From Perkinsus marinus ATCC 50983 (Eukaryota > Perkinsozoa > Perkinsida > Perkinsidae), in the NCBI RefSeq assembly GCF_000006405.1, contig NW_003205427.1:9306-48285 (forward strand): a DNA stretch of 38,980 nt. Direction: 5' to 3'. A program made the position numbers and the translations under genes. This document shows positions 21,473-26,265 of the stretch, one piece after another. Position 1 is the stretch's first letter. The number at the start of each line of letters is the position of its first letter. Under the pieces are notes generated by a model, which had not been told where the DNA came from, did not search any database, and saw nothing but the letters and a program-made list of their open reading frames with translations.

Positions 21473-24400
21473 CTAACCACTATACGGAGAACAAGAGGGC
21501 AATGTCCGAAAAACACAGCTGTTGCTACCCTCATCTTGACGAACCGAGAGTAGCGACGATGGATGCAGCCCCTTCAAAGAGGTTCCAAGCTGGGCAATCT
21601 GGGCTGATGTATGATCCGCACGGACACAAATTCTCAACATAGTATTCTTCCGCTCCGACGCAGTGAAGCCGGCATTTTCTAGTGGTGACACCAGCACAGG
21701 CTGAACGGCAAAACCCTCCCTTCTCAAAAATTGTGCGACACTCTGGGCATCACCAACCTCAATAATCTGCTTGAAGCATTGCGAGTCAGTGAGAACCTTT
21801 ACCCCAGCGTCGACTAGACGTTGGTGCAGTTGCTCAACATTGGCTTGAAGGGAACGAAGACGCTCATTCCCTTGCAGACGACGCATCGTCTCAGCTGCGA
21901 ACTTGCAAGAAGCCGGTGGAGAGCTAGAGCTGAAACAATAGCCGCTGCCATGAAGAGTCTGGTGATCAATGCTGGTTTGCTGTCCAGCACAAAATCCCCC
22001 CTGTGATCCGAAGGCGTGCTCGAGGGAGCCTACGAGGAGGTCGACGGAAGAACATGGAACCTGATTGAACTAGCTTGATAACAGTCCTGGCATGAAACCT
22101 CTCGGTCTTACTCCGTAGTATTCACAATATCCTCGACCATTCTCACCCACTGTACCGATGCCATAGGTGTCATCAAGCAGCAGATAGGCACCAAATTCGT
22201 CTTTAATCTCGACGACCTGGAAAAAAACACACATATCTCGCTCGCCCAGTAAATCGCTCATCTACGGACCTGTGATAGATCCACGCCATAGTTGCTATCC
22301 ATAAGGATCCAGAGCCTACCAGCCCTCGCGGCTATCTTCACGTCTTTGCTCTGTGCCTCTACCAGACTAGCCAGCTGATCGATGTCGCCCGACCACCAAG
22401 TAATGTTCTTTACACGAGAAAGGTTGAGACCAGTACACATATGAACATTCGCATCCTTATGGACTATAGCGAAGTCGTTGTTAGTAAGGAATGCTTGAAT
22501 CTGCCGGGGGTATAGCACATATCAGATTATACGGGTTAAACCAACGACGGTGTCATGACTACTCACCACGCTCGAGTCGGACACAGTATGATGACTGTAC
22601 ACAATGGATGCCTCTGTTCCAAGTAACTCACTGATAGCCTTCTCCAAGTCCAAATGCTCAACGGTAGTACCTGCAATACCGTAAATTACTCAAATGAGGT
22701 GGATTCTGCCCACCATAGAAGCCTCTCGGGCCGCAGGTACCGAAGCCCTTCTCCCTCACGACGGCCCTCGCAATCTCCATCAGGCTGTCGTCTGGCTTAT
22801 GCTGGAGTGACAACGGATCGATCGTGGCGAAATCCACCAAAGAGTCGCCGTGCTCATCCTCAGAATGACTCGAGCAACCATCCCGGGAGGTTGAATCAGT
22901 AGTAGAGATACCTATCATGAGGACCACCGGTCTACGCTTAGACCCAAACTCAGCGATTTGTTCACTCAAAGGCCCACAAGCTTCAAGACCAGAGAGAGAC
23001 CAATAACAGCTTCCCATCCCCTCCTCACTTTTACTCGACATATTCTCTCCCTCCTCCGCATCCACCCAGCTAGGGACCAGAGGCTCTGGCCTCCAATAGG
23101 TCGCCAAGCCAGGCAAAGGATCGCTGACGATTGCTGCCTCGGAGAGGTACTTTCTGTATGCTCTAGATGCTACCTCATCCGTGTTGTTACCGTATTCGAT
23201 GCCTGAGTCAGACAGAAACATCCAGAGGGAGATGACATCACTAATAGACCTCACCCACTATCCTGGAGACCTCCTTCATAACCTCAAGGGTAGTATCTAG
23301 TTGCTCCTTCGTATGGCTAGCACTCACACAGAATCTGGCCCGAGCCAGAGTTACCGGTGTGGCAGGATACCCAACCTGACCAACGACCACCCCTGACCAA
23401 GGGCAGTCCCGATTGTCCTCGACGTACCACAACAGTTGCTATATTCCTCTTCAAACACTCTCTTGAGAACTGAGCGATCTTCTCAGGGTGAACCTGGAAT
23501 AACCTATCACTCGAATAACATATCAATTATAGATGGGCAGAATTACGTTACGGACCGTTACGGTTCTCTTTTACGGTTACGATTCAAGTCCCGTACCGTG
23601 AAATTACGGCGCCGTAACGGGCTTTACGGAGATGCAGAGGACAAAACGAGGATTGATCATTCAAGTCGCCTGAATCTGTTTTATGTGAATGCCCATCGGT
23701 AGACGAAGCTGGCTTGGCAGTTCCGGGCCAGCTTGGGAGTATGATGGGCGAAATTTGCAAAGGAGACGAGTGGTAAATGCCAATCCGAATGTTACTCTCT
23801 CAGCAGTTCGGTTGAATCCGAGCGGCTCGGACCGAGCCACGAAAGATGAGTTAACATCTAATTGAGCTATGAAGGAGTGCACTACAGCGAATGTTTCAGC
23901 CACAATTCTAACAAAGCAGTTCAGCACCAACCGTAAAGTCGTAACCGGCCTTTCCGTAACCGTAAACTGCTTACGTTACGCACGCCGTAACGTAAACCGT
24001 AAAAAAACGTTACGCTGCCCATCTATACTATCAATGCTATCAAAGTCTCTGTTGTCGGAAGTATACCAGCAAAAAGCAGATGACGGGTGAGTCAGTATCG
24101 CCAATGACGCGAAGATTGAGTTCCATCAGACCTTTTCGAAGATAGTTTGCGTTCTCTCGGAGTGCACGTAACTGTTGGTGAATAATGAGCTCAGGTACCC
24201 CAGCCATGATCAGCTCTACCCTGGTCTTGCCTCTCTCAGTCGACAGCAGGTCCAAAACGGCCATGGCCTGCGCTGTGACCATTGGTGGCATCGCAGCTCC
24301 GTGGATCCAACCCAGGGAGCAGCGACGAAGGTGCTGAGGACCAACGATGAGATCCTACTTCACTGGTAGACTACCTCTCCGAGCTGCCCTACCTGAATGC

Positions 24401-26265
24401 ACTGGCTAGTACTGGCAATATATCCACCATTAGAGCCAAAGGACTTGCTGAAAGTTCCCATCATGATGTCGATCTCTGATGTATCTGCAGGAACTCTATC
24501 GAGGAAAGTGATAAGGCCAATGATTTAATACAACAGCCTGCATATGAACGAGGGAAATCCTGCGCTCGATTTCATCCACACAGCGGAGCGATGCGGTCGG
24601 CCACTTATTACCAACATCGAACAGCTCAGAAATGCCTCGGCCAGTAGGCCCAACAGCTCCTATAGAATGAGCCTCATCCAACCAAAGGTAGCATTTATAC
24701 TTGTTCTTCAGCGACACCTGACCATTACAGTAGAATGTTGCCAGTTTAAACTACTATGAGGGAAGGGAACATGCCGTTTACTTGGTTTTACCGTTTCTCT
24801 CAATCTACAGAACTCGCCCTCCATGGAAAATATTCCTTCCACCAGTATAACGATCTTAGCCCATTTTCCCGAGCCTACAATACCCGATGTGGAAGAAGGA
24901 TGGTATTGGTAAGAGAGACATGCCTATTACGGGTCTCTCTATCAAGGATCTTCTCAAGGTCATGCATATTGTTATGCTTGAAAACGATGACCTTCGCGTT
25001 GCTTTGCTTCACACCCTCCACGATGGACTTGTGGTTCAGCTGGTCAGATACAAAAAGAGTCTAAAAACATTCCAATACGGATAATAGTCCGTTATGCAGC
25101 ATCAAAGAGACAAAACTAGAATGAAACTAGAGCTAAGGTACGGACCACCTTCTTAGCCCCTGGTCCGCCTTCAGTCATAGCCAAAGCACCCAGGAAAGTA
25201 CCTGCAGCTTGGTTTCATTCCAAACAGGAACATATTGGTTATGTTGTACAGCTCGAAAGCAAGCATAGGGACGAAACATAAGCTCTGCTTCTGTTGAGTA
25301 TTACTGTTGGTGGCAAATCCCATGCCCGTTACAAGGGCTGCCTCTTTGCCCAAGAATGCTGCCACCTTCGACTCAAACTCAGTGTGGAGCCTATTCGTTC
25401 CTAAGGACCCACCATAGAAGACCACACGCTGCATTGTGGTCATCACCTCCATATTCTGGTCGCGAAGCACACACTGCCAGCCCGAACTGGTCTAACGCTT
25501 TGATCGCCAGTGGAGTGCCTGATGTGGAGCTCAAGTTACTCTACAAGGGTCGAGTATCCTCCTACAGTATTCATCGGTGCCTCCAAATCCAAGGTAGTTA
25601 AACGAAGCCAAATTGATACATCCTTTCTGGACCTCCCCAGTAGGTTGGAATTTCCCAAAGCGCTTCGCAATGTGATAATGACGAGCTCGGACGAGTACCT
25701 GGTTAGAACACCTCTACCTAGTGTCTCTATCCCTTGAAGGGATAGAGACACTAGGTAGGGATTCCCTTCTCGAGTAATACATCGATGGTGCTGCCCGGTG
25801 CCGAACATATGGGCCTATTCCAACAGTCCTCGATCCTTCGGTACCTGGATCCCAACCGAGACCTCAATATGGTCCATCCAGTTGCTCGCCGACTATTCTC
25901 CGTCCCACTCACATGTGCTGAGTATAGAATTCTTTCCACCACTGCGGGCACCATTTCTCGTTAGCATTCTTTTTCTTATTGACCGTAACAGTCCAGAGAC
26001 ACTCTCTTAGTATGCCCTTCATAAAAAGGACCATACAGCTGATGTAAGCATGGACAACGGGTGCCCATGGGAGGCCTGTTTCACGATAAGAGTGGTCATT
26101 TGTCTCCTTACGCAGCCCTAACCCATAACCCTGACAACCCATCAACTTGAGTTCGTCTGCTACTTTTGGCGAGCCTAGCAGTGCTGCGGCGGACCATCTT
26201 GGTGGGCCACTTCCACAAACCCCACTTCCCAAGACCGAACAGGCCAGAGAAGTACTCATAGTCAT
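21473..26265 (-). CDS. Single-chain serine palmitoyltransferase (LCB2-LCB1 fusion)
   Basis: Serine palmitoyltransferase condenses L-serine with palmitoyl-CoA, the first step of sphingolipid synthesis at the ER. It is normally a heterodimer of LCB1 and PLP-binding LCB2. Here both halves lie on one minus-strand frame. LCB2 half: membrane segment WAPVVHAYISCMVLFMKGIL, CWNRPICSAPGSTIDV, GCINLASFNYLGFGG, KVIVFKHNNMHDLEKIL, LWLDEAHSIGAVGPTGRG, MGTFSKSFGSNGGY (PLP Lys codon 24444-24446) and GYPATPVTLARARFCVSASH. A 52-nt intron (23203-23254, GTGAGG...CTGACTCAG) removes the apparent stop and joins SRIVG to IEYGNN. LCB1 half: WRPEPLVPSW, GFGTCGPRGFYG, VEHLDLEKAISELLGTEASI, LLLDDTYGIGTVGENGRG, GSQGGFCAGQQTSIDHQTL (no Lys, as expected for LCB1) and GYCFSSSSPP. 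The start at 26265 is uncertain; a scaffold gap lies 390 bp upstream. Confidence 0.85.
23203..23254 (-). other. Fusion-junction intron (52 nt)
   Basis: Donor GTGAGG with its first G at 23254 and acceptor CTGACTCAG ending at 23203. Reading through it gives a stop (VGEVY then TAG). Splicing it out gives an in-frame join of the LCB2-like C-terminus to the LCB1-like N-terminus. Its length matches other introns in this window. Confidence 0.75.
23528..24027. mobile_element. 500-bp hAT-like non-autonomous element (MITE) in an intron
   Basis: The terminal inverted repeats TATAGATGGGCAG (23528-23540) and CTGCCCATCTATA (24015-24027) are perfect over 13 bp. Subterminal regions are rich in inverted and direct TTACGG/CCGTAA motifs on both sides. 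The flanking octamers ATATCAAT (23520-23527) and CTATCAAT (24028-24035) match at 7 of 8 positions, as expected of an aged 8-bp target duplication. The 8-bp duplication and the TAGATGGGCA-type end point to the hAT superfamily. No transposase is encoded. The host is the serine palmitoyltransferase intron 23494-24066, which would be about 65 nt without the element. Confidence 0.85.
25714..25758. repeat. Intronic 45-bp palindrome (22-1-22)
   Basis: Two perfect 22-bp arms, beginning CTACCTAGTGTCTC and ending GAGACACTAGGTAG, separated by a single G. It lies inside an 82-nt intron of the serine palmitoyltransferase gene (25699-25780, donor GTATTA, acceptor TAACCAG). Removing one arm plus the centre leaves 59 nt, a normal intron size for this genome. 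Confidence 0.9.

What the first reader, a model, noticed from the sequence alone, without database searches (positions are those of the whole stretch)
21473..26265. Apparent single-chain serine palmitoyltransferase: LCB2 and LCB1 halves in one reading frame
Sequence: a complete LCB2-like half (PLP lysine in TFSKSFG, DEAHSIGAVG, GYPATPVTLARARFC) is followed without intergenic space by a complete LCB1-like half (WRPEPLVP, CGPRGFYG, GGFCAG, GYCFSSSSPP). The apparent LCB2 stop lies inside a 52-nt GTGAGG...CTGACTCAG interval whose removal joins the halves in frame. Knowledge: almost all eukaryotes make the two subunits from separate genes. The notable exception I know is the single-chain LCB2-LCB1 enzyme of Emiliania huxleyi viruses and haptophyte relatives. 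Inference: this organism, probably an alveolate, either evolved or acquired the same fusion. A fused enzyme fixes 1:1 stoichiometry and may change regulation by ORM/small-subunit-type partners.
Basis: partly seen in the sequence, partly recalled or inferred. Interest (0 to 1): 0.88.

Follow-up and report, generated by a model that had tools for sequence, protein, structure and literature searches.

The report
Fused two-subunit sphingolipid enzyme in Perkinsus
An oyster parasite encodes the first enzyme of sphingolipid synthesis as one long protein instead of the usual two separate subunits, and databases hold the same arrangement in many other single-celled organisms, so it looks old rather than a recent oddity.

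Summary
On the minus strand, 26525..21473, a 23-exon gene encodes a 1034-aa chain: LCB2, then LCB1 without its N-terminal segment. The model equals the deposited Perkinsus marinus 'serine palmitoyltransferase, putative' over its first 1016 residues. The 52-nt interval 23254..23203 is an intron; the exon after it holds both the last LCB2 motif (GIEY) and the first LCB1 motif (WRPEPLVP), with no methionine between. The genome has two more fused loci with an intron at the same place; in one, the halves share a single open frame whether or not that intron is spliced. No separate LCB1 or LCB2 was found.

This is the known coccolithovirus-type enzyme, but no rare exception: 84 of 166 profiled homologues are fused, all LCB2 first. 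A Perkinsus-virus sister relation is rejected for both halves (p 0.005, 0.019). Perkinsus groups with Amoebophrya and unnamed sequences, which points to descent within alveolates. None of the 84 matches the LCB1 segment that holds its first membrane helix, the ORM-contacting one elsewhere. No Perkinsus RNA was seen.

The parts
21473..26525 (-). whole gene of the single-chain serine palmitoyltransferase, 23 exons, 1034 aa
   Evidence: spliced model identical to P0001 (P. marinus, 1042 aa) over residues 1-1016
23255..26525 (-). LCB2 half, exons 1-17 (residues 1-568 and first base of 569)
26393..26504 (-). extra N-terminal hydrophobic helix, residues 8-26 (intron 1 inside)
   Evidence: hydropathy scan; helix 4-29 in the predicted model, low confidence there
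26008..26064 (-). second, weaker hydrophobic helix, residues 107-125, before the FYTQHMYRRIEDCWNRP motif
   Evidence: score just over threshold; helix 106-133
24444..24446 (-). codon of the PLP lysine in TFSKSFG (residue 416)
   Evidence: invariant in the 46-row alignment
23203..23254 (-). junction intron (52 nt, phase 1) holding the apparent LCB2 stop
   Evidence: intron at the same position in two other loci
23029..23202 (-). exon 18: end of LCB2 (GIEY) and start of LCB1 (WRPEPLVP) in one open exon, no Met between
21473..23202 (-). LCB1 half, exons 18-23 (residues 569-1034)
22714..22735 (-). CGPRGFYG, LCB1 active-site loop; its last codon is split by intron 19
   Evidence: invariant
21983..22000 (-). 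GGFCAG of LCB1; the preceding GSLEHAFG has His where LCB2 has the PLP Lys
21000..21077 (-). alternative last coding stretch used by the deposited model P0001 (its residues 1017-1042)

Best explanation
The gene encodes a single-chain serine palmitoyltransferase. Its LCB2 half binds PLP and catalyses the condensation of serine with palmitoyl-CoA. Its LCB1 half, without the lysine, completes the active site across a built-in heterodimer interface. A linker of about 32 residues joins GIEY (end of LCB2) to WRPEPLVP (start of LCB1), so the halves fold as one pseudo-dimer with fixed 1:1 ratio. The chain is anchored by hydrophobic helices at its N-terminus, while the membrane helix that starts ordinary LCB1 is missing. 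The enzyme was inherited within the alveolate lineage from an old fusion shared with coccolithoviruses and other protists. Shown here: gene structure, both halves, conservation of the join, tree position, no separate subunit gene found. Inferred: catalysis, intramolecular pairing, altered ORM control.
Against: No RNA of Perkinsus was seen; all Perkinsus proteins are gene predictions. The junction splice sites are only average (186 of 2314 pairs score as well). In this locus intron retention would give a nearly complete LCB2 ending at GEVY. In the LCB1 tree the fused green/chlorarachniophyte group (E) and group Cp sit beside part of the separate LCB1s: separate LCB1s form one side in only 3% of bootstrap trees, though one clade of all 43 fused rows is not rejected (p 0.287). 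Three further fused rows (P0065, P0099, P0116), left out of that test as long branches, also fell among separate LCB1s in the quick tree. The LCB1 half was not covered by the structure comparison, whose rows were filled by the LCB2 half.
Confidence: 0.92

Rival explanations
1. Two genes lie back to back and gene prediction merged them. LCB2 ends at the TAG after VGEVY, and LCB1 is made from its own message, possibly by spliced-leader trans-splicing (known in Perkinsus, recalled), starting at Met623.
For: A stop codon does lie in the genomic frame after VGEVY. A Met at residue 623 would leave the whole LCB1 enzyme domain.
Against: In the second locus no stop separates the halves even unspliced. 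Ending at VGEVY loses the GI-x-Y end of LCB2, which exon 18 supplies. No Met between GIEY and WRPEPLVP; Met623 is not conserved in P. olseni or P. chesapeaki. Transcript-named fused proteins exist in relatives.
Confidence: 0.03
2. Recent acquisition of the fused gene by Perkinsus from a haptophyte or coccolithovirus.
For: Same layout as the virus enzyme, and P. marinus is among the best hits of the virus enzyme in a 2017 review (PMC5371807).
Against: Perkinsus+EhV as one clade rejected in both halves: p 0.0046 (LCB1), 0.019 (LCB2). Perkinsus+EhV+group C rejected too: p 0.0075 (LCB1), 0.0009 (LCB2). Perkinsus joins Amoebophrya and groups A and B. No sequence in the trees was named as a haptophyte, so a haptophyte source is tested only through EhV and group C.
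Confidence: 0.04
3. The fusion arose several times independently: once in the alveolate/coccolithovirus/group C set, and separately in the green/chlorarachniophyte set (E), in set Cp and perhaps in others. This does not compete with the reading of the Perkinsus gene itself.
For: E and Cp fall beside separate LCB1s in the LCB1 tree; P0065, P0099 and P0116 do so in the quick tree.
Against: One clade of all 43 fused rows tested is not rejected for LCB1 (p 0.287) and is present in the best LCB2 tree (84/97). The order is always LCB2-LCB1 and the LCB1 N-terminus is never matched (84 of 84).
Confidence: 0.4
4. Both forms are made: retention of the 52-nt intron gives free LCB2 and splicing gives the fused chain, so the intron sets the dose of each.
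For: The retained reading frame ends four codons after the junction.
Against: No transcript evidence; the matching intron of the second locus is in frame and stop-free, so retention there gives no free LCB2.
Confidence: 0.04

Closest known systems
Single-chain serine palmitoyltransferase of Emiliania huxleyi viruses (P0122, EhV-201, 870 aa)
   Same: One chain, LCB2 then LCB1, LCB1 N-terminal segment not matched. Reported to complement yeast lacking SPT, with a reservation about its activity (PMC6148460, passages).
   Different: Virus gene, 870 aa against 1034-1047 in P. marinus. Not the sister of Perkinsus in either half. Its preference for myristoyl-CoA is untested in Perkinsus.
Heterodimeric SPT of animals, plants and fungi (SPTLC1/SPTLC2, LCB1/LCB2)
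   Same: Both halves are clear homologues (E 7e-116 and 2e-45), same active-site motifs.
   Different: Two genes there. LCB1 there has a membrane domain that contacts ORMDL (PMC9479574, abstract), not found here.
Apicomplexan SPT (Toxoplasma TgSPT)
   Same: Also alveolate, also departs from the usual two-gene enzyme.
   Different: Bacterial-type homodimer of a single domain (PMC5519370, passages), not a fusion of eukaryotic LCB2 and LCB1.
Engineered fSPT (SPTLC2-SPTSSA-SPTLC1)
   Different: Man-made and includes the small subunit; no hydrophobic segment was found in the Perkinsus linker.

Membership tests
Single-chain (coccolithovirus-type) LCB2-LCB1 serine palmitoyltransferase | one reading frame with a complete LCB2 followed by LCB1 | tested here: met
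   deposited P0001 has the same layout; unspliced open frame across the join in a second locus
Single-chain (coccolithovirus-type) LCB2-LCB1 serine palmitoyltransferase | PLP lysine in the first half only | tested here: met
   Lys416 in TFSKSFG; GSLEHAFG in the second half; K416 invariant in 46 rows
Single-chain (coccolithovirus-type) LCB2-LCB1 serine palmitoyltransferase | common descent with the virus enzyme | tested here: inconclusive
   On one side of a branch with EhV and groups A, B, C, D and P0096: LCB2 96/94; with F as well, LCB1 100/98. Not sister to EhV. Trees unrooted.
Single-chain (coccolithovirus-type) LCB2-LCB1 serine palmitoyltransferase | enzyme activity as a single polypeptide | not testable with these tools
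   needs expression
Heterodimeric eukaryotic SPT with separate LCB1 and LCB2 | subunits from separate genes | tested here: not met
   three fused loci in the genome; LCB1 and LCB2 queries find besides them two 5-aminolevulinate synthases and two 57-58-residue weak hits left unidentified; the search scores only the best candidates, exon by exon
Heterodimeric eukaryotic SPT with separate LCB1 and LCB2 | LCB1 N-terminal membrane helix | tested here: not met
   LCB1 profile match of P0001 begins at position 83, and at 65 or later in 84 of 84 fused proteins; 41 of 54 separate LCB1s begin at 50 or before. A profile test; the other 13 separate ones also begin later.
Heterodimeric eukaryotic SPT with separate LCB1 and LCB2 | ORM-type regulator in the same genome | tested here: inconclusive
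   PF04061 found no match, but the control rang in none of 14 genomes
Apicomplexan/bacterial homodimeric SPT | single aminotransferase-fold domain of bacterial type | tested here: not met
   two PF00155 stretches, each half closest in the PDB to a eukaryotic subunit; the two single-domain relatives in the genome are 5-aminolevulinate synthases

The most novel reading that the evidence does not exclude
Single-chain SPT is one of the old, widespread architectures of eukaryotic sphingolipid synthesis, present before perkinsids, syndinians and group B diverged and perhaps from one fusion shared with prasinophyte/chlorarachniophyte, coccolithovirus and other lineages. In the alveolate branch the membrane helix lost from LCB1 was replaced by a new N-terminal helix on the fused chain, so feedback by ORM-type proteins must have been rewired or lost. 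The split genes reported in EhV-18 and EhV-145 would then be secondary, not ancestral.
Probability: 0.4. Interest if true: 0.68.

Novelty: new member of a known kind. Interest (0 to 1): 0.5.

Why it matters
SPT sets the rate of sphingolipid synthesis, and it is described in eukaryotes as two genes held in check by ORM proteins that contact a membrane helix of LCB1. A large set of protists in which the subunits are one chain and that helix is missing gives a natural test of how much of this control is needed. It also changes the reading of the coccolithovirus enzyme: the fusion need not be a viral invention, and the split genes in two virus strains are more likely derived than ancestral. For Perkinsus it says that the pathway starts differently from the two-gene enzyme of animals and from the bacterial-type enzyme of apicomplexans.

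Tried and rejected
My first model (1057 aa) kept in-frame introns as coding; it was replaced by the model, but the database searches were made with the first one.

Virus origin: viral-contig scans with P0001 and alignment A2 gave no relative. The scan with P0065 gave four contigs with a short homologue; the one I read (L004) has a 398-aa single-domain ORF. The phage collection gave 19 records under 60% identity with matches of about 0.7-1.1 kb, single-domain size. The long contigs of group A were suspected to be giant viruses; no support was found.

Sampling and dropped rows: the protein searches scored only the 7999-8000 candidates sharing most words and one search listed 120 of 152, so the census is a lower bound and not a survey. 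Profiling covered 166 proteins: all 92 and 74 of the 136 further ids; a bacterial BioF hit (P0114) and many insect and fungal LCB1s were left out. Some of the 84 fused rows are fragments (e.g. P0133, P0134). The quick trees used 50 of the 84 fused proteins with 18 of 28 LCB2-only and 24 of 54 LCB1-only. One search used 57 of the 68 rows and one search used 60 of the 74; long branches, near-duplicates, fragments and some further rows were dropped, P0089 among them (labelled separate LCB2 but inside fused group E). With all rows, separate LCB2 needed 2 and separate LCB1 needed 3 changes. P0042, first put in group B, fell outside it in every tree.

Splice-site strength was tried as proof of the junction and is not decisive (in its list of 17 alternative joins the matrix included the junction intron itself). 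An ORM gene was looked for once; the answer is uninformative. A small SPT subunit was not looked for.
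Full report
WHAT IS THERE. The gene runs on the minus strand from 26525 to 21473. I spliced it by hand at GT-AG borders and compared it with the database. The final model has 23 exons, 22 introns (21 of 42-127 nt, one of 573 nt) and 1034 residues, and is identical to P0001, 'serine palmitoyltransferase, putative [Perkinsus marinus ATCC 50983]', over residues 1-1016. 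The different last 26 residues of P0001 are also encoded in the window, 21077-21000. So the window is this P. marinus locus or a copy indistinguishable from it. P. marinus is an alveolate of the phylum Perkinsozoa. The window is part of a 54.5-Mb assembly of 347 contigs.

THE JUNCTION. Exon 17 ends at 23255 and exon 18 begins at 23202. The 52 nt between begin GTGAGG and end TGACTCAG; read through they give GEVY and a TAG stop. Spliced, the protein reads SRIVG-IEYGNN. The residues IEY align with the end of human SPTLC2, so exon 18 finishes LCB2. The same exon then reaches WRPEPLVP, the first conserved motif of LCB1, with no stop and no methionine between; the next methionine is residue 623. That methionine is present in the second P. 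marinus protein but not in P. olseni P0003 and P0004 or P. chesapeaki P0005. As splice sites the borders are average: leave-one-out score 8.99 in a range of 1.4 to 13.03 for the 22 introns, and 186 of 2314 GT-AG pairs of 38-130 nt score as high. Among 17 GT-AG pairs near the junction that give a stop-free join this pair scores best, although that comparison used a matrix that included it.

THE SAME JOIN ELSEWHERE IN THE GENOME. Searching the window's own assembly with P0001 gives three fused loci: this one on contig C261, and two side by side on C69 at 901172-905735 (about 80% identical) and 907285-911337 (about 57-60% in its longer matches). Both have an intron at the same position and phase, 51 nt and 217 nt long. 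In the first, the 51 nt are a multiple of three and hold no stop: one 130-codon open frame runs from GYPATP, near the end of LCB2, past WNPEPLVP, the start of LCB1, whether or not the intron is removed. There the two halves cannot be two genes. Queries with a vertebrate LCB1 (P0128) and LCB2 (P0077) find the same loci, two single-domain genes on C19 and C122, and for LCB2 two weak 57-58-residue hits that I did not identify. The C19 and C122 genes are 5-aminolevulinate synthases (TIGR01821 far above its cut-off for both; PDB match for C19). So no separate LCB1 or LCB2 gene was found, within the limits of an exon-by-exon search.

HOW FAR THE FUSION REACHES. I profiled 166 proteins from three database searches with one profile from separate LCB2s and one from separate LCB1s. 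84 carry both, always LCB2 first. They include six Perkinsus proteins (P. marinus two, P. olseni three, P. chesapeaki one), two Amoebophrya strains, Lotharella globosa, one labelled Ostreococcus mediterran(eus), Entamoeba marina (partial LCB2), EhV-201 and many unnamed sequences. Nine bear transcriptome names (mmetsp: P0032, P0046, P0049, P0056, P0057, P0060, P0063; TRINITY: P0048, P0099), so fused messages appear to exist in relatives. In no fused protein does the LCB1 match begin before position 65 of the profile (median 107), while 41 of 54 separate LCB1s begin at 50 or before. The unmatched part holds the first hydrophobic helix of LCB1, which in Xenopus P0128 lies at residues 21-39, roughly profile positions 48-66 by arithmetic; the fused protein that begins at 65 is at its very edge.

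WHERE IT COMES FROM. In the LCB2 tree Perkinsus, groups A, B, C, D (Amoebophrya), P0096 and EhV lie on one side of a branch supported 96/94. In the LCB1 tree the same groups with F lie opposite all separate LCB1s and groups E and Cp, 100/98. Perkinsus, A, B (without P0042) and Amoebophrya together get 95/93 (LCB2), 96/88 (LCB1) and 95/92 on both halves. A Perkinsus+EhV clade is rejected in both halves (p 0.0046; 0.019), as is Perkinsus+EhV+C (p 0.0075; 0.0009). All 43 fused rows as one clade is present in the best LCB2 tree (84/97) and not rejected for LCB1 (p 0.287), but in the LCB1 tree the green/chlorarachniophyte group and group Cp sit among separate LCB1s, and three fused long-branch rows left out of that test did so in the quick tree. 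One old fusion or several are both open. Groups A, B and C have no organism names; that B is dinoflagellate is my inference from its place beside Amoebophrya (a dinophyte), and no row was named as a haptophyte.

HOW IT PROBABLY WORKS. The fused chain should fold as a built-in heterodimer: LCB2 holds PLP, LCB1 closes the active site, and the linker fixes the ratio. [quoted passage not shown] In humans, SPTLC1 variants in the membrane domain that interacts with ORMDL impair ORMDL binding and raise synthesis (PMC9479574, abstract); that the ORMs contact transmembrane domain 1 of Lcb1 is the title of a paper seen only in a reference list. The Perkinsus enzyme has no such helix on its LCB1 half but has a strongly hydrophobic N-terminal segment (residues 8-26); of the fused proteins scanned all three of group A, all three of group B and the one Amoebophrya have one within their first 60 residues, and so do the two virus proteins (residues 1-19). 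That it stands in for the lost helix is a hypothesis. Whether Perkinsus has an ORM is open.

WHAT IS KNOWN. The single-chain enzyme is known from coccolithoviruses (PMC6148460; the original 2006 paper was not seen, only its citation). A 2017 review names P. marinus among the best hits of the virus enzyme, and suggests that split genes in EhV-18 and EhV-145 may be the ancestral state (PMC5371807, passages). With fused relatives in alveolates and other protists, I read the split as more likely derived. Toxoplasma SPT is a bacterial-type homodimer, and its authors call the enzyme heterodimeric in all eukaryotes analysed to date (PMC5519370, passages). In nine searches of the open library (several listings capped) I saw no title, abstract or passage describing the fusion in Perkinsus; no search named Amoebophrya, and subscription journals are largely not held.

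VERDICT. A real fusion, already deposited under a plain name, and a new, well-placed member of a known kind. What raises it above ordinary is the breadth of the fused family, the evidence against a viral source, the apparent lack of separate subunits, and the consistent absence of the LCB1 helix.

Noticed in passing
window 23530-24025, in intron 15: A MITE-like element: inverted ends TAGATGGGCAG... at 23530-23547 and 24008-24025, with TA at both borders; it explains why this intron is 573 nt. The end motif occurs only twice in the window (up to 3 mismatches), expected 0.05.
   Followed up: partly
window 25714-25758, in intron 5: Perfect 22-bp inverted repeat with a 1-nt loop; real hairpin or assembly fold-back not decided.
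   Followed up: no
window 26652-26751: Run of N just upstream of the gene start, so the promoter and any earlier exon are unread; the second P. marinus protein (P0002) has 17 more residues at its start.
   Followed up: no
own genome G000:C69:901172-911337 (L013, L014): Two further fused SPT loci side by side on one contig; the second looks of the P0004/P0005 type, so Perkinsus would carry two diverged kinds of the fused gene.
   Followed up: partly
own genome G000:C19:28430-29548 and C122:883783-884856 (L015, L016): Two 5-aminolevulinate synthase genes, largely in one open frame each.
   Followed up: partly
P0031, P0035, P0041, P0043 (group C) and P0048, P0052, P0059 (Cp): Triple fusion LCB2-LCB1-PAP2 lipid phosphatase (PF01569); E-group P0056 and P0060 also end in a cluster of hydrophobic helices without a Pfam match.
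   Followed up: partly
P0116, Entamoeba marina, 684 aa: Carries the C-terminal part of LCB2 followed by LCB1 in one protein; its LCB1 half pairs with unnamed P0065 in the quick tree.
   Followed up: no
P0218, 251 aa, environmental contig of 7168 bases: Fragment 92% identical to the Perkinsus LCB1 half, with LCB1 sequence only; too short to tell a split gene from a cut prediction.
   Followed up: no
P0004, P. olseni, 1300 aa: Deposited protein has an extra tetraspanin-type domain (PF00335) and further hydrophobic helices after LCB1; may be a merged gene model.
   Followed up: no
window 31247-32802 and 30101-30408: Long 24/48-bp tandem repeat arrays (32.8 copies of 48 bp) with long open frames on both strands, rich in Ser, Thr and Val in one + frame.
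   Followed up: no
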